A DNA stretch of 8,957 nucleotides. Origin: Pseudomonadota bacterium. Lineage in GTDB: Bacteria; Pseudomonadota; Gammaproteobacteria; Burkholderiales; Gallionellaceae. The stretch covers positions 1-8,957 of the forward strand of contig JAJXTL010000121.1 in NCBI GenBank assembly GCA_021783855.1, in the 5' to 3' direction. This document shows, one piece after another, positions 1-8,957 of this stretch. Numbering within the stretch: position 1 is the stretch's first letter; each line of letters begins with the position of its first letter. Below the pieces are notes generated by a model. That model saw only the letters and a program-made list of their open reading frames with translations, was not told where the DNA came from and did no database searches. The translations under genes and the position numbers were made by a program.

Positions 1-2019
1 GGCTGTTGCCAGGCTGAGCAACTCGATTTCACCACTACCCTTGCAAAGCACCAGTTTTCCGTTGCGCACCAGTACTGCACGTCCGCCTTTTTCCAAGTGA
101 GACGTGACGACAGGCAATTCGCCATGCGCTGCAAAGAACATCACTTCACCATCGCTATAGCGGGCCAGATCGGCTACCAGCGGGTCGGCGCCATTGAGTA
201 TGGCAACGCCGTCTGACAGCACCACATCAACCTGAGTGCGCAGCACATTGCATACCTGCTCATCGCTTCCGATGTAATACTCGCCGAAATGGCGAGCGGG
301 CTCCAGGTTGGTGACGATGCCGATCTGGCAGCGATCGTAGCCCAGTCCCTCGGACAAGATAGTGTTAAGGGGGTTTTCGATGACCGCCGCATCCACCGAA
401 CGGTTGAGCAATACTTTCTGCGCGGCAGCCCAGGTCGCGCAATCCCGCTTGTCCACCAGACGCTTGTCAAAAAACAGTCCTTCGCTGCTGGCCGTGCCGA
501 CAAAAAAACCTGCCAGCTTCAACAATCTGGCCAAGATGCGCGCGACCTGTGACATGCCATGCGTGCCGCATATGCCGATTACCGGGATGCGAGCGCTCTC
601 ACCTGCGGCAAACAGACTGTCGACGATGGCGCGCCCCACCGGACGCGGCTCGCCAAAAGCAGGTTTCAAATGCATGAGCAGGCCGGGACCCGCATTGATT
701 TCAACGATGGCGCCGCCCTGTTCAGTCAAAGGGCGTGAAATATCCTCAGCCACCAGATCAATCCCGGCGATGTCCAGCCCCACAATGCGCGCGGCAAGCG
801 CGGCTGTCGCCGCCACGTCCGGATGCACCAGATCAGTGACATCGATTGCGACATTACCGTTGCGCTGGATCAGCACCTTGGCGCCCCGGGGCGGCACCGA
901 GTCCGCCGTGTAGCCCTGGCGGGCAATTTCAAATCTGACCGTCGGATCTTCATCGAGCAAGATCAGGCTGAGCGGGAAATCTTCACTGACCCCGCGACGC
1001 GGATCGGTGTTGATCTGCTCATCTATCAGTCGGCTGACCGATGAACTGCCGTCCGCCAGCAAAAACACCGATTCGCCGCGTGCCGCCGCCGCCAGACGTC
1101 CGCCTACCACCAGCAGCCGATGTTCATGGCCGCGCACAAAACGTTCGACGATGACTTCGCTACCCTCGTTGTCGGCCAGCTTGAATGCCGCCTCCACCTC
1201 GTCGCGCGTCATCAGTTCGCTGGAAACGCCGCGCCCGTGATTGCCGTCCGTAGGTTTGACGACCACCGGCAGGCCGATATCTTCGGCAGCCTGCCAGGCA
1301 TCAGTCGGGCTGTCGACGATACGCCCCTCAGGCACTGGAACGCCGCAGGCTTGCAGCAAAGTTTTGGTAAGGTCCTTATCTCTGGAAATGCTCTCGGCAA
1401 TCGCGCTGGTCCGGTCGGTCTCCGCAGTCCAGATGCGATGCTGACGGGCGCCATAGCCCAGTTGCACCAGATTGCCTTCGGTCAGGCGTATGGACGGAAT
1501 GCCTCTGTCGGTTGCCGCTTCCACGATACACGCGGTGCTCGGCCCCAGACAAAGCGAGTCGACCATCTCGTGCAGCCTCGCAACGGAGGCTGCGACATCG
1601 TAAGCCCTGTCCTGCATCGCCGCGAGGATCAGATCGCGCGCATCATGCAGCGCGGCCCGGGAAACATCCTCGTTGCGCGAACGCACCACCACCTTGTAGA
1701 CGCCGCGCTTTGACGTTTCACGCGCCTTGCCGAAGCCGCTCTGCATGCCGGCCAGATTCTGCAATTCTATGGTGACGTGTTCGAGTATGTGACCGGGCCA
1801 GGTGCCTTCGCGCAGACGCTGCAAAAATCCGCCGCGCTCACCGACACCGCAACGGTGTTCGACCAAAGTCGGCAACCAGTCGGTGAGTCTTTCGTAGAAG
1901 CCGGGTATGGTATTGGAAGGCGAATCTTCAAGTGCACCGATATTCAGCCACACCTCAAGCACAGGACGATATGTCCAGATATTCGGGCCGCGCAGAGGCA
2001 ATATTTTCAAAAACTCCAT
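1..2019 (-). CDS. cphA': Cyanophycin synthetase paralogue CphA' with degenerate Mur-ligase domain (3' end outside window)
   Basis: Reading the minus strand from the ATG at 2019 gives 673 codons without a stop, so the gene leaves the window on the left. Cyanophycin synthetase makes the storage polymer multi-L-arginyl-poly-L-aspartate in the cytoplasm, using an ATP-grasp domain to add Asp and a Mur-ligase-like domain to add Arg. Seen here: the typical start MEFLKILPLRGPN, an N-terminal domain (about 1-160) with HxxEH at residues 77-81, an ATP-grasp domain (about 165-470) with KPTDGNHGRGV at 255-265 and VEINAGPG at 439-446, then a Mur-like domain. In that last domain the usual GTNGKTT P-loop is GTHGMSQ (485-491, Lys to Met at 489), and the usual ETARGGIL is ENPLNTIL (548-555). 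The usual NLSTGG loop of the ATP-grasp domain is replaced by a shorter segment. The frame is clean, so it is not a decayed pseudogene. Ralstonia eutropha is known to carry paired cphA and cphA' genes; this is probably the cphA' type, with a canonical cphA perhaps beyond the left edge. Family assignment is sure, enzymatic activity is not. Confidence 0.93.
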   Translation of the reverse strand, partial: MEFLKILPLRGPNIWTYRPVLEVWLNIGALEDSPSNTIPGFYERLTDWLPTLVEHRCGVGERGGFLQRLREGTWPGHILEHVTIELQNLAGMQSGFGKARETSKRGVYKVVVRSRNEDVSRAALHDARDLILAAMQDRAYDVAASVARLHEMVDSLCLGPSTACIVEAATDRGIPSIRLTEGNLVQLGYGARQHRIWTAETDRTSAIAESISRDKDLTKTLLQACGVPVPEGRIVDSPTDAWQAAEDIGLPVVVKPTDGNHGRGVSSELMTRDEVEAAFKLADNEGSEVIVERFVRGHEHRLLVVGGRLAAAARGESVFLLADGSSSVSRLIDEQINTDPRRGVSEDFPLSLILLDEDPTVRFEIARQGYTADSVPPRGAKVLIQRNGNVAIDVTDLVHPDVAATAALAARIVGLDIAGIDLVAEDISRPLTEQGGAIVEINAGPGLLMHLKPAFGEPRPVGRAIVDSLFAAGESARIPVIGICGTHGMSQVARILARLLKLAGFFVGTASSEGLFFDKRLVDKRDCATWAAAQKVLLNRSVDAAVIENPLNTILSEGLGYDRCQIGIVTNLEPARHFGEYYIGSDEQVCNVLRTQVDVVLSDGVAILNGADPLVADLARYSDGEVMFFAAHGELPVVTSHLEKGGRAVLVRNGKLVLCKGSGEIELLSLATA

Positions 2020-2127
2020 CAAACCTTCCTGGTGAATTGTGTAACGTGCAGCAGTTAACGCAGCACACGGCATTTTGGTTTACCGGCAACCTTACATGGA
2101 GTTTACCAGAGGGTGCGCTAAAACTGT
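2020..2127. other. Divergent intergenic spacer between cphA' and the ABC transporter gene
   Basis: This 108-base spacer separates two genes transcribed away from each other, so it should hold the promoter of cphA' and part or all of the control region of the ABC/DUF1854 pair. By eye there is no convincing sigma-70 pair for cphA' and no clear operator palindrome. A sigma-54 signature (GG-N10-GC) was not evident either. The shared position makes joint regulation of both transcripts likely, but that is inference. Confidence 0.5.
2024..2030 (-). promoter_or_regulatory. Ribosome binding site of cphA'
   Basis: On the minus strand AGGAAGG lies four bases before the ATG at 2019. It supports this start, which also gives the family's characteristic N-terminus. 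Confidence 0.6.
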
Positions 2128-2155
2128 TTGTCGCTGCGTTTTATTGTAGTAATAT
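2128..2155 (+). promoter_or_regulatory. Candidate sigma-70-like promoter overlapping the start of the ABC transporter gene
   Basis: TTGTCG at 2128-2133 and TAATAT at 2150-2155 are separated by 16 bases; each matches its consensus hexamer at four of six positions. If used, transcription would begin near 2162, after the TTG start proposed for the ABC gene, and translation would have to begin at the GTG at 2164 or further on. Such matches occur by chance in AT-richer spacers, so this is weak support only. Confidence 0.25.
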
Positions 2156-4440
2156 CGCCGCCAGTGAATATATCTCCCCCTATTAAAGCCGCCACTCCGG
2201 ACGCATGGCGCACCATCGTACAGTCGCGACTGTCAGACCATGAAGAGATTGCAGCCGAGCTTGCGATCAACCTCGATGCGCGGTTGAATTTTTCTCAGAG
2301 TCTGCTGGTTGTCAGCAACCAGCGCCTCATCTGTTTCGATGGACAGCAGTATCGCGACTACCCTTATCATGAAGATCTGACGATACAACGCCACGACCAC
2401 GGCGGAGTAGGCAGAATCGAATTATTCGACGTTGATGTCCGTCTGGCCTGCTGGTTTTATACGCTGGCGCATAACGTTCAGGCCGCACGCTTCGTCAAAC
2501 AGTTCGAACGGCAGCGCACCTCGTTTATTTCTGGTATTGCCGCCTCAAGTGTAGCGCCCGAATGCTGTCCGGATTGCCTGACACCGCTGACCGATCAGGG
2601 GGCATGCCCGTTTTGCAGCGACACCGTCAATATGCCGCCTTCAACCTGGACGCTGTTTCGCCTGTGGCGTTTTGCGAAACCCTATCAGTGGCAGTTATTG
2701 GCAGGATTTTTGCTGATGCTCGCTTCCACCGCCGCCACGCTGGTGCCGCCCTATCTCACCATGCCGCTGATGGATCGTGTGCTGATACCCTACCAGAACG
2801 GCACGCCGATCGATTTTGCCATCGTCGCCTGGCTGCTGGCAGGCTTGCTGGGTTCGGCCCTGCTGGCCTGGTCTTTAGGCTGGGCCAAGACCTATATTCT
2901 GGCGCTGGTAAGCGAACGCATCGGGGCCGATCTGCGCACCATCACCTATGAGCACCTGTTGCGTCTTTCGCTGGAATATTTCGGCGGCAAACGCACCGGC
3001 GACCTGATGTCGCGCATCGGTTCGGAATCGGATCGGATCTGTGTCTTTTTATCTTTGCATCTGCTCGACTTTGCGACCGATGTGCTGATGATCGTGATGA
3101 CTTCGGTCATTTTATTTTCCATCAACCCGTGGCTGGCGCTGGTCACGCTGGTGCCGCTGCCCTTCATCGCATGGATGATCCACAACGTGCGCGACCGGCT
3201 GCGCACCGGCTTTGAAAAAATCGACCGCGTCTGGTCGGAAGTGAGCAACGTGCTGGCCGACACCATTCCCGGCATCCGCGTGGTCAAGGCGTTCGCACAG
3301 GAAGGGCGCGAGGCGGATCGCTTCAAAGTCGCCAACGCCCACAACCTGCAGGTGAATGACCGCATCAACAAAATCTGGTCGCTGTTCACCCCCAGCGTCT
3401 CCCTGCTAACCGAAATCGGCCTGCTGGTTGTATGGGCATTCGGCATCTGGCAGGTATCGAAGAACCAGATTACCGTCGGCGTGCTGACCGCTTTTCTGGC
3501 TTACATCAGCCGCTTTTATGCGCGCCTGGATTCGATGAGCCGCATCGTGTCCGTCACGCAGAAAGCGGCTGCCGGCGCTAAACGCATTTTCGACGTGCTC
3601 GATCATGTTTCCAGCGTGCCGGAGCCGGTTAATCCGGTCCGTCTGGACAAAATTGCGGGGCGTATCGAGCTCAAAAATGCGGGATTCCGCTATGGCAATC
3701 GCGCGGTCATCAAGGATCTGAATCTCATCATCGAGCCCGGCGAGATGATCGGACTGGTTGGCCACAGCGGTTCGGGAAAAAGTACGCTGGTCAACCTGAT
3801 GTGCCGTTTCTACGATGTCTCGGAAGGGTCGATCAGCATAGACGGCGTGAACATCAAATCATTGTCCATCCCGGATTATCGGCGTCACATCGGCCTGGTG
3901 TTGCAGGACCCGTTTCTGTTCTTCGGCAGCATTGCCGACAACATTGCTTACGGCAAACCAAATTCCACGCGCGCCGAGATCGTCGCCGCTGCCCGTGCCG
4001 CCCATGCCCATGAATTCATCCTGCGTCTGCCGCACGGTTACGACTCACTGGTAGGCGAACGAGGTCATGGCCTGTCCGGCGGCGAACGACAGCGCATCTC
4101 GATTGCACGCGCCTTGCTGATCGACCCGCGTATTCTGATACTCGACGAAGCGACCGCCTCGGTGGATACCGAAACCGAGAAGGAAATCCAGAAGGCGCTC
4201 GACAATCTGGTGCATGGCCGTACCACTATCGCCATCGCACACCGCCTGTCCACGCTGCACAAGGCGAACCGGCTGGTGGTGCTGGACAAGGGCGAAGTTG
4301 TAGAAATCGGCAGTCACGACGATCTGATGGCCAGGGAAGGCGCTTATTACCGGCTGTATCAGGCGCAGGCGCGCAATGTGGATACCGATCTGGATGATGC
4401 ATCCACCCGCATTCCGATAGACAGGAAGGTGAGCACATGA
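2128..4440 (+). CDS. Cyanophycin-associated ABC exporter half-transporter (permease-ATPase fusion) with PH-like and zinc-ribbon N-terminal extension
   Basis: This 770-residue protein has the fused permease-ATPase layout of type IV ABC exporters (MsbA/MDR type) and should act as a homodimer in the inner membrane. From the N-terminus: a soluble part (about 45-130) that resembles a bacterial PH/GRAM-like fold; a zinc ribbon with CxxC pairs at 147/150 and 160/163; a transmembrane domain (about 175-490) with several long hydrophobic segments; and an ATPase domain (about 511-750) with Walker A GHSGSGKST at 545-553, Q-loop Gln593, signature LSGGERQR at 649-656, Walker B ILILDEA at 669-675 and switch His705. 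All catalytic motifs are intact, so it should hydrolyse ATP. The gene overlaps the next one by four bases and diverges from cphA'. Relatives are recurrent neighbours of cyanophycin genes, but the substrate is unknown. The start is uncertain: an in-frame TAA at 2119 limits it; TTG 2128 has only AGAGGG at 2108-2113, rather far upstream, and GTG 2164 has no evident ribosome binding site. Confidence 0.9.
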   Translation: MSLRFIVVISPPVNISPPIKAATPDAWRTIVQSRLSDHEEIAAELAINLDARLNFSQSLLVVSNQRLICFDGQQYRDYPYHEDLTIQRHDHGGVGRIELFDVDVRLACWFYTLAHNVQAARFVKQFERQRTSFISGIAASSVAPECCPDCLTPLTDQGACPFCSDTVNMPPSTWTLFRLWRFAKPYQWQLLAGFLLMLASTAATLVPPYLTMPLMDRVLIPYQNGTPIDFAIVAWLLAGLLGSALLAWSLGWAKTYILALVSERIGADLRTITYEHLLRLSLEYFGGKRTGDLMSRIGSESDRICVFLSLHLLDFATDVLMIVMTSVILFSINPWLALVTLVPLPFIAWMIHNVRDRLRTGFEKIDRVWSEVSNVLADTIPGIRVVKAFAQEGREADRFKVANAHNLQVNDRINKIWSLFTPSVSLLTEIGLLVVWAFGIWQVSKNQITVGVLTAFLAYISRFYARLDSMSRIVSVTQKAAAGAKRIFDVLDHVSSVPEPVNPVRLDKIAGRIELKNAGFRYGNRAVIKDLNLIIEPGEMIGLVGHSGSGKSTLVNLMCRFYDVSEGSISIDGVNIKSLSIPDYRRHIGLVLQDPFLFFGSIADNIAYGKPNSTRAEIVAAARAAHAHEFILRLPHGYDSLVGERGHGLSGGERQRISIARALLIDPRILILDEATASVDTETEKEIQKALDNLVHGRTTIAIAHRLSTLHKANRLVVLDKGEVVEIGSHDDLMAREGAYYRLYQAQARNVDTDLDDASTRIPIDRKVST
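4423..4429 (+). promoter_or_regulatory. Ribosome binding site of the DUF1854 gene
   Basis: AGGAAGG lies seven bases before the ATG at 4437, inside the last codons of the ABC gene. It fixes the start and, with the ATGA stop/start overlap, indicates translational coupling. Confidence 0.7.
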
Positions 4441-4898
4441 ACGATTTTCAACTGACTCGTAATCCGTCCGGTCTGCTGGTATACACCTGCGGTGACGAAG
4501 TGCATGAAGGCGTCGTACCGGTGCGCGCTTTTCCGATTGCGGCGCCCGATCAGTGCCTGTCCTTGATGAGTCGTGACGGCCATGAAGTGGCCTGGCTGGA
4601 AAACCCTGAGGATTTGCCCGCCGATATCCGCATGCTGATCACTGATGAACTGGCATGCCGTGAATTCATACCGAAAATCAGCCACATCAGCGAGGCGTCG
4701 AGTTTCGCCACGCCCAGTATCTGGCAGGTGGAAACGGACAGGGGAAGCACTGAGTTACTGCTCAAGGCCGAAGATCACATCCGTCGCCTGTCGCACAACG
4801 CCCTGCTCATCACCGACGGGCACGGCGTCTCATTTCTGATAGGCGATATGGAAAAGCTGGATGTCCACAGCAGAAAGTTGCTGGACAGATTTCTGTAG
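4437..4898 (+). CDS. DUF1854 family protein associated with cyanophycin metabolism
   Basis: This small soluble protein of 153 residues has no signal peptide and no membrane segment. It matches the DUF1854 family as I remember it: EGVVPVRAFPI near residues 24-34, an acidic middle with DELACREFIPKI (about 70-81), SSFATPSIWQVETDRG (about 87-102), a DHIRRL segment and the C-terminal HSRKLLDRFL. The biochemical role of the family is unknown. Its start codon overlaps the stop of the ABC transporter gene (ATGA, four bases) and has a strong Shine-Dalgarno sequence, so the two proteins are probably made together and may act together, for example as an accessory subunit of the transporter. The link to cyanophycin rests on the divergent synthetase gene next door and on the family's recurrent neighbourhood. 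Length is normal and nothing looks truncated. Confidence 0.88.
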   Translation: MNDFQLTRNPSGLLVYTCGDEVHEGVVPVRAFPIAAPDQCLSLMSRDGHEVAWLENPEDLPADIRMLITDELACREFIPKISHISEASSFATPSIWQVETDRGSTELLLKAEDHIRRLSHNALLITDGHGVSFLIGDMEKLDVHSRKLLDRFL

Positions 4899-4914: not shown

Positions 4915-6888
4915 TCACTGGCATTTCAGCAGTTGTTCAAACTCACCGGCAGGCACCGGGCGGCTGCTCAGATAGCCTTGATACAGGTCGCACCCCTGGG
5001 TCTTTAAATAGGCAAGTTGATTTTTGTTTTCAACCCCTTCGGCCAGCACCTTCAGGCGCAGCGAGTGCGCCATGGCGATAATCGCGGCGACGATTTCCAT
5101 GTCGTCGCGGTGCAATGGGACATCGTCAATAAAACGCTTGTCGATTTTCAGAATATCCAGCGGAAACAACTTGAGGTAGGCCAGCGAAGAATAGCCGGTA
5201 CCAAAGTCGTCAATCGCCAGTTTCACGCCGAGCACCCTTAGCCGGTTGAGAATCAGGATAGCCTCGGTTTCGCGCTGCATCAACGCGCTCTCGGTCAGTT
5301 CCAACTCCAGATATTCTGCCGGGAAACCGGTATCGTTCAAAACCCGGGTTACGGTTTTACTGATGTCACCTTGCAAAAACTGGTAGGGAGACAGGTTGAC
5401 TGCCAACGTGAGCGGCGTTAAGCCCGCCGCTCTCCAGCGTTGCCCTTGCAAACAGGCTTCCCTCAACACCCAGTCGTCAATTTCACCTATCAGACCGGAG
5501 GCTTCCGCAATGTGAATAAAGCGCGCCGGCATGATCAAACCTTCGGTCGGTGACTGCCAGCGCACCAGTGCTTCGGCGCCGACGATGCGCCCACTGGCAA
5601 TCTCCACCTGCGGCTGGTAGTACACGCGCAGCTCGCCATGATTGATGGCATGACGCAATCTTACTTCAAGATCTATCCGTTCGCGCGCTGCGAGAGTGAG
5701 GCTATTCGAAAAATACACAAAGCGACTGCGACCTTCAGTTTTGGCCTTGTATAGTGCACTGCCTGCCTGTTGCAACATCAGTTCCGGCGTGTTGCCATGT
5801 CCGGGAAAGATGCTGATGCCGACACTGGCGCCGGTACGTACCTCGACGCCATTTGATAGCCGGTAGGACTCGTTCAACGCTTCTATAATTTCGTTCGCTA
5901 TACGAGCAGCATCTTCAGCCTCACCGAGATCATCGAGCAGCATGGTGAATCCATCACCGCCCAGTCGGAAAACCGTATCCAATTCGCGCCGTTGCGCATC
6001 CAGCCTGTCGGCTACCAGTTTCAATAGCTCATCGCCTGCCAGGTGGCCGAAGCTGTCGTTGATATCCTTGAAGCGATCCAGATCTATCATCAGCAATGCC
6101 AGATACTTGCCATCGCGCTGCGCTCTTTGCATGCTGTGCTGCAAATTCGACATCAGCAACAAGCGGTTCGGCAATTGCGTCAATGGATCGTGATTGGCGA
6201 GAAAATCGAGATCGGATTGCGATTGCCTGAGTGTGGAAATATCGGCAAAAACCGTAACATAGTTGTTCACCACACCGGAAACATCCTTAACGACAGCCAG
6301 GCTCGCCAACTCAGGGTATATTTCACCGTTCTTGCGCCGACTCCAGATTTCTCCCTGCCAATGACCGACGCTTGCAACGCTGTCCCACATTGACGCATAA
6401 AATTCACGGTTATGACGCCCGGAGTGGAGTATTTCGGGTGTTTCTCCCAATACATCGGTTTCCGTATAACCGGTAATTTCGGTAAAGGCCGGATTGATAC
6501 GCACGATACGTTTTTCGGTATCGGTCACCATCACCCCCTCACGTGTACTGTCAAATACAGCAGCCGCCAGGCGCAACCCAAGCTCAGACATTTTTCGCTC
6601 GGTGATGTCGCGCACGCCAATCACGTAAGCTGACTGACCTTCCCAGGTGATGGGCGAGGAACGCAACTCAGCCCAACCTATACCGCTGCGACGGATCAAA
6701 TTAATGTCTTGATGAGCAGCAGTATGAGAGACGGGAATGGCTAAATCACAGCCCTGCAAATCGCCGCGTTCAAAAATATGTTCGGCGCTCTGATTGGCAT
6801 ACAGCACGATACCATGCTGATTAACAACCACAATGCCGTCCGTGATAGCCGCTAAAATCAGCTCGATATTGATTTTAGTTTCGGTCAT
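4915..6888 (-). CDS. PAS-PAS-GGDEF-EAL protein, probable cyclic-di-GMP phosphodiesterase with degenerate GGDEF
   Basis: This 657-residue cytoplasmic protein has no membrane segments. Domains: PAS 1 (about 5-98, ending in DITERK), PAS 2 (about 104-218, with the GYTETDVLG segment), GGDEF (about 228-395) and EAL (about 405-655). The GGDEF active-site motif reads GGDGF at 310-314, so the acidic fourth residue is lost and cyclase activity is unlikely. The inhibitory-site motif RELD (301-304), five residues before it, is kept, so the domain may still bind cyclic-di-GMP or GTP as a regulator. The EAL site looks complete: EAL 439-441, Asn498, ELTE 530-533, DD 560-561 followed by the FGTGYSS loop, Lys581, EGVE 617-620 and Gln637. 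Breakdown of cyclic-di-GMP to pGpG is therefore expected. It is the last gene of the minus-strand signalling group, 32 bases after the REC-KaiB gene. No strong ribosome binding site precedes the ATG, so translation may depend on the upstream gene. Cofactors of the PAS domains cannot be told from sequence. Confidence 0.93.
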   Translation of the reverse strand: MTETKINIELILAAITDGIVVVNQHGIVLYANQSAEHIFERGDLQGCDLAIPVSHTAAHQDINLIRRSGIGWAELRSSPITWEGQSAYVIGVRDITERKMSELGLRLAAAVFDSTREGVMVTDTEKRIVRINPAFTEITGYTETDVLGETPEILHSGRHNREFYASMWDSVASVGHWQGEIWSRRKNGEIYPELASLAVVKDVSGVVNNYVTVFADISTLRQSQSDLDFLANHDPLTQLPNRLLLMSNLQHSMQRAQRDGKYLALLMIDLDRFKDINDSFGHLAGDELLKLVADRLDAQRRELDTVFRLGGDGFTMLLDDLGEAEDAARIANEIIEALNESYRLSNGVEVRTGASVGISIFPGHGNTPELMLQQAGSALYKAKTEGRSRFVYFSNSLTLAARERIDLEVRLRHAINHGELRVYYQPQVEIASGRIVGAEALVRWQSPTEGLIMPARFIHIAEASGLIGEIDDWVLREACLQGQRWRAAGLTPLTLAVNLSPYQFLQGDISKTVTRVLNDTGFPAEYLELELTESALMQRETEAILILNRLRVLGVKLAIDDFGTGYSSLAYLKLFPLDILKIDKRFIDDVPLHRDDMEIVAAIIAMAHSLRLKVLAEGVENKNQLAYLKTQGCDLYQGYLSSRPVPAGEFEQLLKCQ

Positions 6889-6920: not shown

Positions 6921-7610
6921 TTACAGTACCACCGTGTCCGAGCTATTGCCATTTTGGGCCGTGATAGTGGCCAGCATGGGATGCATTTTGGACAAGTCGC
7001 CTAACAGCTTCAAAATGGGTTCAGGAATGTCACGCACCAGCATCGGCGTGGCAAACACGTCTTTTTCCAGTGCTTTTTCAGGCATGCTCAACACCTCCAC
7101 CACATTCAGCGCCCAGAACCCCCGGTGATAGCTTGCCGCCAACTCGTTTCTGAGTTGCGTGATGAATTGCTGAGCCTCCGGATTGATGGACATGACATAC
7201 AGCGTCAGCTTGATTTTTCGGCTGCCTGGGATCACTTCATCAACGACGCGCACAGATTTGGCGATATAGCGAATCTGTGCTGACGACAGCGGCTTGCTGG
7301 CTAACTGAAATACCAACCCTTCGGCTTGCGCTGTCTTCAAATCGGCCAGGTATTCCTGCGAGAAGGCAGTGACAATGTATATCTTCAACGTGCTATCCAT
7401 CGCCAACAAGCGGCGCATCGTCTCGACTCCATCAATACCCGGCATCTTCAAATCCAGAAAAATCAAATCAGGGCGCGCAGCCTTGACCAGCGCTACCCCT
7501 TGCAAACCATCCTCTGCTGCGCGTACCGTACAGCCCATCTCTTCCAGCACTAATTGGAACGAACCGCGCACGGCGGCATCATCATCAATTACAACAATAT
7601 TCTGAGTCAT
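6921..7610 (-). CDS. Response regulator with KaiB-type output domain (REC-KaiB fusion)
   Basis: This protein has 229 residues. The first 120 or so form a CheY-like receiver domain: acidic residues Asp9-Asp11, phospho-acceptor Asp53 in LDLKMPGIDG, Thr81 and Lys106 in the ASKP motif, all intact. After a short linker, residues about 132-208 match KaiB, the thioredoxin-like clock protein that binds KaiC. KLTLYV (134-139), ALNVVEVL (167-174), FATPML (186-191), a proline-bearing helix start and GDLS (204-207) correspond in order and spacing to KLYV, ALKVIDVL, ATPTL and GDLS of cyanobacterial KaiB. There is no DNA-binding or known enzymatic output domain, so the protein should act by protein-protein contact, with a KaiC-like ATPase as the obvious candidate, although none is seen here. 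The C-terminal tail of about 20 residues is polar. The gene lies 24 bases after the histidine kinase gene, its likely cognate kinase, and 32 bases before a cyclic-di-GMP phosphodiesterase. A purine-rich GGGATGAGAG precedes the ATG. Confidence 0.9.
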   Translation of the reverse strand: MTQNIVVIDDDAAVRGSFQLVLEEMGCTVRAAEDGLQGVALVKAARPDLIFLDLKMPGIDGVETMRRLLAMDSTLKIYIVTAFSQEYLADLKTAQAEGLVFQLASKPLSSAQIRYIAKSVRVVDEVIPGSRKIKLTLYVMSINPEAQQFITQLRNELAASYHRGFWALNVVEVLSMPEKALEKDVFATPMLVRDIPEPILKLLGDLSKMHPMLATITAQNGNSSDTVVL

Positions 7611-7634: not shown

Positions 7635-8957
7635 TTAAGCCTCTTTAAAAACCAACTGGAAACAGGCGCCAGGCGCCTGTTTCTCATTGTAACTCAGACT
7701 GCCGCCCATCTCTTCGAGCAGTTGCCTTGACACGGCCAAGCCAAGGCCGGTGCCTTTGCCGATCGGTTTGGTGGTAAAAAAAGGATCGAATATTTTTTTA
7801 CGGATTTCATCACTGATACCAGGACCGTTGTCGCATACCGTTAGAATGATTTCACCGCTCTGGTGACGGCCGCTGATGGTAATGCGCTGCTCCGACTGCT
7901 CCGCAACGGCATCCCGCGCGTTCAGCAACAAATTCACCAGCACTTGTTGCAAACTGCCTGCGCTGCATTTAACTTGCGGGAGATCGACAGGCAAGTCGAT
8001 CTGAAGTTGCACTGCATTTTTTCTGAATTCGCCTTCCAGCAAGGCAGCGGTTCGTCTGACTGAGTCGTGGACATTACATATGGCATGATGGTCGCTGTCA
8101 GCACGTACGAATACCAGCATATGCTGCACGATTACCCTGATACGATCTATTTCGTGCAGTGCATTGCCCAACACCTCGATTGATTTGGCATCGACGGCCT
8201 TGTTTTTAGCATATTCGACATAGTTCATTACACCCATCAACGGGTTGTTAATTTCATGTGCCACACCGCCCACCATGGTACCCAACGAAGAAAGCTTCTC
8301 GATTTGAATCATGCGCTCGCGTGCCTCTTCAACCAGTTTGCGGGCGCTATTGTCGGTGCCGATCAGCAGGTAGCCGATGATGGCATTTTGCACGTCTCGC
8401 AGTGCAGTGACAGACACGACGGCCGGAAATCGGCTGCCATCGCGACGAATATAGGTCAGCTCGTAGATATCCTCGATGCCGCGCGAGGCTTTGAACACCA
8501 AAGCTTCGAAGCCCGGCATAATCGTAGTGCCAAGTTCATCACTCAAGGCGCGGGCGCGTGCAATCAACTCTTGTGGATCGGAAAGATCCGCCGGTGTGAT
8601 CTTGTTCATCACGTCGCTGGCGGTGTAGCCCAGCATGCGCTCGGCACCGACGTTGAAAATCTGAATCACGCCCTTCGCATCGGTGGCGATACTGGAAAAG
8701 TTGGCGCTGTCGAAAATCGCTTTCTGCAACGCGCCCGCTTTGAGCAGCGCTTCCTCTGCTAGTTTGCGGGCGGTATTGTCGGTACCGATCAGCAGGTATC
8801 CGATGATGGCGTTTTCTTTGTTACGCAGCGCGGTGACCGATACGACAGCCGGGAATCGGCTGCCATCCTTACGGATATAGGTCAGCTCGTAGATATCCTC
8901 GATACCGCGCGAGGCCTTGAACACCAGGGCCTCGAAGCCCGGGGTGATTGGGAGATC
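7635..8957 (-). CDS. PAS-repeat sensor histidine kinase (5' end outside window)
   Basis: The frame stays open to the right edge, so 440 C-terminal residues are visible and the true start lies beyond 8957; the GTG at 8924 is internal to a PAS repeat and is not the start. In order: the C-terminal half of one PAS-PAC unit, a full second PAS-PAC unit (with [10 protein letters not shown] and ending in the same [11 protein letters not shown] segment), then the kinase core. The H-box is VAHEINNPL with the phospho-acceptor His at 8256-8258, followed by the N-box [10 protein letters not shown] (about 7905-7940), the G1 box DNGPGI (about 7816-7836), the F-box FDPFFTTKP and the G2 box GTGLGL (about 7741-7760), all intact. 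No membrane segment occurs in the visible part, so sensing looks cytoplasmic, with PAS domains binding an unknown ligand or cofactor. The gene sits 24 bases before the REC-KaiB gene, which makes that protein its likely phosphorylation partner. The core resembles NtrB-like orthodox kinases. Confidence 0.93.
7659..7683. repeat. Perfect 12-bp inverted repeat at the 3' end of the kinase gene
   Basis: GAAACAGGCGCC and GGCGCCTGTTTC flank a single central base. In RNA this would fold as a hairpin of about 11 pairs with a three-base loop. It lies inside the coding sequence, 22 bases before the kinase stop codon; on the minus strand five T residues follow a few bases after the second arm. It may weaken read-through or protect the kinase mRNA end, or it may be chance in a coding segment. 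Confidence 0.6.
8335..8520 (-). repeat. Direct repeat copy 1: PAS-PAC segment of the kinase gene (membrane-distal to the core copy reads second)
   Basis: This segment matches 8761-8946 at an offset of 426 bases (142 codons), with about 85 percent identity by hand count and no indels. It encodes the C-terminal half of the PAS unit next to the kinase core. The exact multiple of three keeps the frame and indicates an in-frame internal duplication. Confidence 0.8.
8761..8946 (-). repeat. Direct repeat copy 2: upstream PAS-PAC segment of the kinase gene
   Basis: This is the second copy of the 426-base duplication, running close to the window edge, so further units may lie beyond. At protein level the stretch from FKASRGIED to [11 protein letters not shown] is nearly identical in both copies, differing by a Lys/Arg exchange. 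Confidence 0.8.

What the first reader, a model, noticed from the sequence alone, without database searches (positions are those of the whole stretch)
6921..7610. Receiver domain fused to a KaiB clock domain (REC-KaiB)
KaiB normally occurs as a free protein of about 100 residues, or as the KaiB-like sensor domain of the SasA kinase. Here a KaiB-type domain (residues about 132-208) takes the output position of a response regulator with a complete phosphorylation site. Phosphorylation could therefore control a fold-switching or KaiC-binding module, the reverse of the SasA arrangement, where a KaiB-like domain controls a kinase. This would be a phosphorelay-gated clock-type output in a non-cyanobacterium.
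Basis: partly seen in the sequence, partly recalled or inferred. Interest (0 to 1): 0.82.

Follow-up and report, generated by a model that had tools for sequence, protein, structure and literature searches.

The report
KaiB-type response regulator without a clock
A bacterial signalling protein joins a phosphate-receiving switch to a domain related to the clock protein KaiB; in most carrier genomes searched the clock's core protein KaiC was not found, and the gene instead sits between a sensor kinase and an enzyme whose front domain appears to belong to this module, so KaiB here is probably a relay part and not a timer.

Summary
The 229-aa gene (6921-7610, minus) is a complete receiver domain (REC, Asp53) plus a KaiB domain (Pfam 38.9 bits, cut-off 27). 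It is a real family: 495 related proteins, 27 genome loci in beta- and gammaproteobacteria. The clock reading does not hold: no KaiC was found in 21 of 27 carriers, whereas free KaiB and KaiC matches coincide in 11 of 11 genomes of one genus. The domain sits in its own KaiB clade. Gene order is kinase - REC-KaiB - PAS-headed effector. The kinase core stays while its sensor varies; the effector's first PAS stays while its output varies: GGDEF-EAL (17 of 27), kinase, mostly hybrid (7), HD-GYP-type (1). That PAS subtype occurs in 5 of 89 genomes of one genus, exactly the REC-KaiB ones. Best explanation: phosphorylated REC gates a KaiB domain that docks on this PAS and sets effector activity, here a predicted c-di-GMP phosphodiesterase. 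Docking is inferred from genomics; nothing was measured. AlphaFold gives a low-confidence, ground-state-like KaiB fold. New variant of a known kind.

The parts
6921..7610 (-). REC-KaiB response regulator, 229 aa
   Evidence: ORF; Pfam; 495 homologues; 27 genome loci
7275..7598 (-). Receiver (REC) domain, residues 5-112, with phospho-acceptor Asp53 (codon 7452-7454), Asp9/Asp10, Thr81, Lys106
   Evidence: Pfam PF00072 E 5.1e-22; site residues conserved in 99-100 of 100 rows
6987..7202 (-). KaiB domain, residues 137-208 by Pfam; family conservation extends to about residues 131-218
   Evidence: PF07689 E 7.1e-10; PDB KaiB chains; separate clade from the free KaiBs compared
7635..8957 (-). Histidine kinase with tandem PAS domains, HisKA, HATPase; runs off the window's end; 24 bases upstream of REC-KaiB
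   Evidence: Pfam; kinase core adjacent upstream in 25 of 27 loci
4915..6888 (-). Downstream effector PAS-PAS-GGDEF-EAL, 657 aa; EAL motifs intact, GGDEF site reads GGDGF; 32 bases after REC-KaiB
   Evidence: Pfam; motifs
6580..6888 (-). PAS1: N-terminal PAS domain (residues 1-103) of the effector, proposed docking partner of the KaiB domain
   Evidence: Conserved across GGDEF-EAL, HD-GYP-type and kinase outputs; in the two genera searched it tracks REC-KaiB, with three exceptions told in the report

Best explanation
This is the middle gene of a KaiC-independent three-part relay. A histidine kinase with an exchangeable sensor phosphorylates Asp53 of REC (inferred from adjacency and intact motifs). 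Phosphorylation changes the exposure or conformation of the attached KaiB domain (inferred). The KaiB domain docks on the N-terminal PAS domain (PAS1) of the protein encoded next door (inferred from conservation and co-occurrence) and so sets the activity of an exchangeable output: here a PAS-PAS-GGDEF-EAL protein predicted to be a c-di-GMP phosphodiesterase, elsewhere an HD-GYP-type enzyme or a (hybrid) histidine kinase. Shown here: the domain architecture, the complete phosphorylation site, the gene order, the variable sensor and output ends, PAS1 tracking REC-KaiB in the two genera searched, and no KaiC found in most carriers. Not shown: phosphotransfer, any binding, direction of the effect.
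For: Kinase core within 275 bases upstream on the same strand in 25 of 27 loci, PAS1 downstream in 25 of 27; exceptions L014 and L021 (no kinase of this type), L017 (PAS1 gene gone), L020 (contig ends). Sensors found differ: PAS-PAS (window, L001), CHASE3 (L004), Ser/Thr kinase-AAA-GAF (L010 and L017 scanned, of a 19-locus cluster), ETR1_N-PAS (L087). Outputs differ: GGDEF-EAL in 17 of 27 (L021's runs off its contig), kinase in 7 (receiver seen in 6; L022's runs off its contig), HD_5/HD-GYP in 1; in the HD case PAS1 is 71% identical to the window's and nothing else matches. In 21 of the 43 carriers known by then, PAS1 at E <= 1e-6 was found in 20, at 22 places: 20 beside intact REC-KaiB, 1 beside a split REC/KaiB cluster, 1 orphan. 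Genus of G004: PAS1 in 5 of 89, exactly the 5 REC-KaiB genomes (Fisher 2e-8). Genus of G010: PAS1 in 23 of 24 REC-KaiB genomes and 3 of 13 others, of which one has the split cluster and two lack an intact REC-KaiB, one of these with a remnant. KaiC not found in 21 of 27.
Against: No interaction was measured or modelled. Co-occurrence within genera also follows from inheriting the operon as a block; the Fisher values ignore kinship. No natural fusion of this KaiB type to a protein of about 490-1550 aa was found (96 candidates, none E <= 0.001). One PAS1 protein is an orphan (L105), two genomes keep PAS1 without intact REC-KaiB and one keeps REC-KaiB without PAS1 (G017), so the parts can persist alone. 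The kinase core is conserved too, so KaiB could contact the kinase.
Confidence: 0.55

Rival explanations
1. KaiB talks back to the kinase or to its own receiver: it is an oligomerisation or lid domain that tunes phosphotransfer or dephosphorylation, while the PAS1 effector is driven by REC or independently. The link to PAS1 is only operon inheritance.
For: The kinase core is also conserved next to REC-KaiB (25 of 27). [quoted passage not shown]
Against: Does not explain why PAS1 alone is kept when the effector's catalytic half is replaced and is missing from the 84 relatives without REC-KaiB in the genus of G004. Two loci keep REC-KaiB and PAS1 without an adjacent kinase of this type (L014, L021).
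Confidence: 0.2
2. One reading: the KaiB domain binds KaiC, as a phosphorelay-gated clock or hourglass output.
For: The domain is a KaiB homologue. Six of 27 carriers have a KaiC-type match; in one of them (G020) it covers only the profile's second half in a 391-aa frame. In the genus of G010 all 5 genomes with KaiC are carriers.
Against: No KaiC in 21 of 27 carriers; in the genus of G010 in 19 of 24; in the genus of G004 REC-KaiB and KaiC are unassociated (1 of 5 against 10 of 84) while free KaiB and KaiC matches coincide in 11 of 11. Of the six carriers with KaiC among the 27, five have a separate kaiB (not G020), as has G406; G037, G039 and G046 were not searched for one. The domain sits in its own clade.
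Confidence: 0.07
3. REC-KaiB is a phosphate sink or acts in trans on unrelated targets; its neighbours are co-regulated but not partners.
For: Regulators without DNA-binding domains can act this way (recalled). In two genomes REC and KaiB units are separate genes in one operon (L087, L088).
Against: Tight gene order over beta- and gammaproteobacteria and the PAS1 restriction.
Confidence: 0.1

Closest known systems
KaiB of the KaiABC clock (Pfam PF07689)
   Same: Homologous domain; 28-32% identity to cyanobacterial ground-state KaiB structures and the same order of elements in a low-confidence model.
   Different: Fused to a phosphorylatable receiver; own clade with a one-residue insertion; positions 89 and 91 replaced; mostly without KaiC.
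SasA (KaiB-like thioredoxin domain on a histidine kinase)
   Same: KaiB-type domain used in two-component signalling.
   Different: There the domain is the kinase's N-terminal part and binds KaiC (PMC6378743, passages; PMC5520375, passages); here it is the output of the response regulator.
KaiA3 of Synechocystis (REC fused to a KaiA C-terminal domain)
   Same: Receiver with phosphorylation site fused to a Kai-type domain (PMC11372060, abstract and passages).
   Different: KaiA-type and not KaiB-type partner; works with KaiB3 and KaiC3.
Elongated KaiB / KaiB-4 of cyanobacteria (about 250 aa)
   Same: KaiB with an N-terminal extension of about 150 aa.
   Different: Extension reported without conserved domain or homologues outside cyanobacteria (PMC5520375, passages); here it is an unmistakable REC. 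KaiB-4 folds in the switched state by NMR (PMC10808063, passages).
Non-cyanobacterial kaiC-kaiB clusters beside kinases or GGDEF/EAL genes
   Different: Those clusters contain kaiC and a free kaiB; here no kaiC lies in the operon and REC is fused to KaiB.
Response regulators with a c-di-GMP phosphodiesterase output (REC-EAL, e.g. PvrR; NCBIfam name)
   Same: Phosphorelay ending in a predicted c-di-GMP phosphodiesterase.
   Different: REC and enzyme are separate proteins, with KaiB and PAS1 as the proposed connector.

Membership tests
Two-component response regulator | Phospho-acceptor Asp, acidic pair, Thr and Lys of the receiver | tested here: met
   D53, T81, K106 in 100 of 100 rows; D9, D10 in 99
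Two-component response regulator | Cognate histidine kinase nearby | tested here: met
   25 of 27 loci; phosphotransfer itself not testable here
KaiB domain family (Pfam) | Score over curated cut-off | tested here: met
   38.9 bits vs 27; 27 of 27 carrier genomes over the cut-off
Circadian clock KaiB (NCBIfam equivalogs) | Score over equivalog cut-offs | tested here: not met
   NF006798 42.9 vs 110; TIGR02654 41.9 vs 145.3 bits
Circadian clock KaiB | KaiC in the same genome | tested here: not met
   KaiC-type match (TIGR02655, E <= 1e-20) in 6 of 27 carriers, 5 of 24 in the genus of G010, 1 of 5 in the genus of G004; the window's own genome is not held
Circadian clock KaiB | Fold switching between ground and thioredoxin-like state | tested here: inconclusive
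Circadian clock KaiB | Gly89 and Asp91 (Thermosynechococcus numbering) | tested here: not met
   Position 215: A 73, T 17, S 10, no G; 217: T 97, A 2, I 1, no D. Some free KaiBs also deviate, including KaiC-linked L085
SasA-type kinase | KaiB-like domain N-terminal to HisKA-HATPase | tested here: not met
   REC-KaiB has no kinase domain
Thioredoxin-type redox protein | CxxC motif | tested here: not met
   0 of 100 rows
Cyanobacterial elongated KaiB (KaiB-4) | Shared N-terminal extension | not tested
   No KaiB-4 sequence was fetched; the published extension has no conserved domain

The most novel reading that the evidence does not exclude
REC-KaiB is a response regulator whose output is metamorphic: Asp53 phosphorylation shifts the KaiB domain between ground and thioredoxin-like folds, and only one fold docks on PAS1. 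KaiB then began, or was reused, as a phosphorylation-gated PAS adaptor unrelated to timekeeping.
Probability: 0.18. Interest if true: 0.9.

Novelty: new variant of a known kind. Interest (0 to 1): 0.68.

Why it matters
KaiB is known mainly as a KaiC partner and as a model fold-switching protein. A KaiB subfamily that lives mostly without KaiC and serves as a response-regulator output would show what KaiB does outside clocks, and gives a system in which a defined input (receiver phosphorylation) may control a metamorphic domain. It also suggests a plug-in relay in which sensors and outputs, c-di-GMP phosphodiesterases among them, are exchanged around a fixed centre of kinase core, REC-KaiB and PAS1. 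Papers on this family were looked for (open-access library only); none of the listed titles and abstract beginnings, and none of the passages I read, describes a REC-KaiB fusion.

Tried and rejected
KaiC in the window's own genome could not be tested: no whole genome is held; relatives were used. Cyanophycin link: cphA, an ABC transporter and a DUF1854 protein share the window and L001, but not the other REC-KaiB loci (clusters 21-23 occur only in L001 and the window); taken as incidental. Redox role: no CxxC. Fusion of this KaiB type to longer proteins: none. The fold search with the full-length model showed receiver structures or receiver-containing entries in its 50 rows, no KaiB, the KaiB half being of low confidence; repeated with the domain alone. 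Lys58, marked in the published KaiB-KaiC complex, is Asp, Glu or Asn here, but KaiC-linked free KaiBs also lack it, so it was not used as proof. KaiB-PAS1 covariation was not attempted: too few paired loci.

Rows dropped before counts: loci L028-L080 were left out on that call's table (identity 29-49%, mostly over the receiver part only) and not examined one by one. In one search a match of G432 below the cut-off was not counted as free KaiB. In one search matches below the cut-off in G260, G305, G307 and G364 were looked at (L097-L100) and gave no match to the family's KaiB profile. L026 gave no match because I took the wrong frame; its match is. In one search up to 70 candidates per genome were scored, fewer than found in nine genomes; all were scored.

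Full report
What is there. The minus-strand ORF 6921-7610 encodes 229 residues: a receiver domain (Pfam residues 5-112, E 5.1e-22) and a KaiB domain (residues 137-208, E 7.1e-10, 38.9 bits, cut-off 27). The same stretch matches KaiB chains of the PDB. It does not reach the NCBIfam clock-KaiB models. Family members number 495 at E <= 0.001 out of 1630 candidates; the 120 listed all have both domains. The phosphorylation site is intact throughout a 100-row alignment. The window is 93% identical over its whole length to L001, a proteobacterial MAG; the family group of L001's genome also holds the genomes of records titled Gallionellales and Gallionella (G002, G005), so the source is probably a Gallionella relative (inference).

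How common. In a sample of 200 genomes of the order of G001, 11 have a KaiB match and only G001 itself a REC-KaiB. In 150 genomes of its family, 26 have a KaiB match and four (G001, G002, G005, G372) a REC-KaiB by frame length, score and, for G372, profile. In the genus of G004 it is in 5 of 89, in the genus of G010 in 24 of 37.

KaiC. A scan of genome contigs gave 27 REC-KaiB loci (L001-L027). All 27 genomes have the KaiB match of REC-KaiB; a separate free KaiB occurs in 5 (G007, G011, G018, G022, G026). With the general ATPase family PF06745 every genome rings, as do all 14 control genomes, but matches at E < 1e-15 occur in only six genomes; the rest have weaker, mostly partial matches in frames of RadA, RecA or DnaB size (that identity is recalled, not tested). 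The KaiC model TIGR02655 at E <= 1e-20 gives the same six of 27; none of them reaches the model's own cut-off, which among the controls only Synechococcus elongatus does, so the E-value limit is mine. In the genus of G010 (37 genomes) 24 have full-length REC-KaiB and 5 have KaiC, all among the 24. In the genus of G004 (89 genomes) 11 genomes have free KaiB and the same 11 have a KaiC match: six over nearly the whole profile, three over its first half, one partial and on another contig than kaiB (G414), one a fragment (G406); REC-KaiB is in 5, of which only G406 has a KaiC match. So the search finds KaiC where a free kaiB predicts it, and REC-KaiB does not need it. Completeness of the draft genomes was not told, but G010 is a complete chromosome by its title.

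Operon. In the window the kinase ends 24 bases before REC-KaiB and the effector starts 32 bases after it. Across 27 loci the same kinase core lies upstream in 25 and PAS1 downstream in 25. The sensor half of the kinase differs between groups, and so does the output half of the downstream protein: GGDEF-EAL in 17 of 27, with the EAL motifs looked for intact in the 16 complete ones; HD-GYP-type in L006; PAS-kinase proteins in L005, L019, L022, L023, L024, L026, L027, six of them with a C-terminal receiver and L022 cut by its contig. The window and L001 have GGDGF at the cyclase site; the other 15 of the 16 complete ones have GGDEF. The window's effector is therefore predicted to degrade c-di-GMP (inference from motifs, recalled).

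PAS1. Residues 1-103 of the effector are the only part shared by all outputs. PAS1 at E <= 1e-6 was searched in 21 of the 43 carrier genomes then known: found in 20, at 22 places, of which 20 lie beside intact REC-KaiB (coordinates), 1 beside the split cluster of G046, 1 is an orphan hybrid kinase in G005. In the genus of G004 PAS1 at E <= 1e-10 is in 5 of 89 genomes, the same 5 as REC-KaiB. In the genus of G010 it is in 26 of 37: 23 of the 24 REC-KaiB genomes (not G017), plus G047 (split cluster) and G033 and G034, where no intact REC-KaiB was found and L110 keeps a 100-codon remnant. Fisher values (2e-8 and 8e-6) treat genomes as independent, which they are not.

Split and duplicated forms. 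G046 and G047 carry an operon kinase - REC - longer REC protein - KaiB - PAS1 effector, with overlapping start and stop codons; G046 also has the intact operon (L106). The longer REC protein begins like the first half of a KaiB domain: the family profile sees this in L087 at E 1.4e-5, Pfam does not, and in L088 I judge it by eye. L008 has two REC-KaiB genes in tandem. REC and KaiB can therefore be separate proteins of one operon, which argues that their partnership, and not the covalent link, is conserved.

The KaiB domain itself. A tree of 41 KaiB domains puts REC-KaiB (20 rows, 97/93), the split forms and three Accumulibacter-type free KaiBs on one side of a branch with 100/99 support, apart from 15 free KaiBs and a Thermosynechococcus chain. 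The program warns of long branches, so the exact placing of the Accumulibacter rows is unsure. AlphaFold2 gave REC with high and KaiB with low confidence in the full protein, and 67.6 mean pLDDT for the domain alone; both have a ground-state-like order of elements, and the domain model is nearer to ground-state KaiB structures than to switched ones. Published work reports that fold-switched KaiB binds the pseudo-receiver of CikA and KaiA through its second strand, and that the switched-fold mutant carries G89A and D91R (PMC6378743, passages). In REC-KaiB these two positions are Ala/Thr/Ser and nearly always Thr, which would point the other way from the model; the resting fold is therefore open.

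Conclusion. A real, conserved KaiB subfamily used as a response-regulator output, in most carriers without a detectable KaiC. The strongest functional inference is that KaiB connects REC to PAS1 of an exchangeable effector. The timing interpretation is not needed and, for most carriers, has no KaiC to act on.

Noticed in passing
window 7635-8957: The kinase's two PAS domains are near-copies: residues 4-70 and 146-212 of the part in the window are 90% identical, a recent tandem duplication; the first lies at the window's cut end.
   Followed up: partly
window 7659-7683: An 11-pair inverted repeat with a T-rich tail lies in the last codons of the kinase, about 50 bases before REC-KaiB, like an attenuator; two terminator-like sites were found in the stretch against 1.0 in shuffles, so it may be chance.
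   Followed up: no
window 1-4898: Cyanophycin synthetase, cyanophycin-associated ABC transporter and DUF1854 protein; in L001 two synthetase-like genes follow in tandem.
   Followed up: no
L087:8597-9106: A receiver protein that begins like half a KaiB domain lies between a REC gene and a free KaiB gene; a like arrangement is in L088.
   Followed up: partly
L105:6158-8131: Orphan PAS1 hybrid kinase in a Gallionella genome that has REC-KaiB elsewhere, a possible second partner in trans.
   Followed up: partly
P0147, P0149, P0150: Free 97-aa KaiB of the REC-KaiB clade named as Accumulibacter; its neighbours are unknown.
   Followed up: no
L010:4852-9972: A 1706-aa protein combining a Ser/Thr protein kinase, AAA ATPase, GAF and histidine kinase precedes REC-KaiB in methanotrophs.
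   Followed up: no
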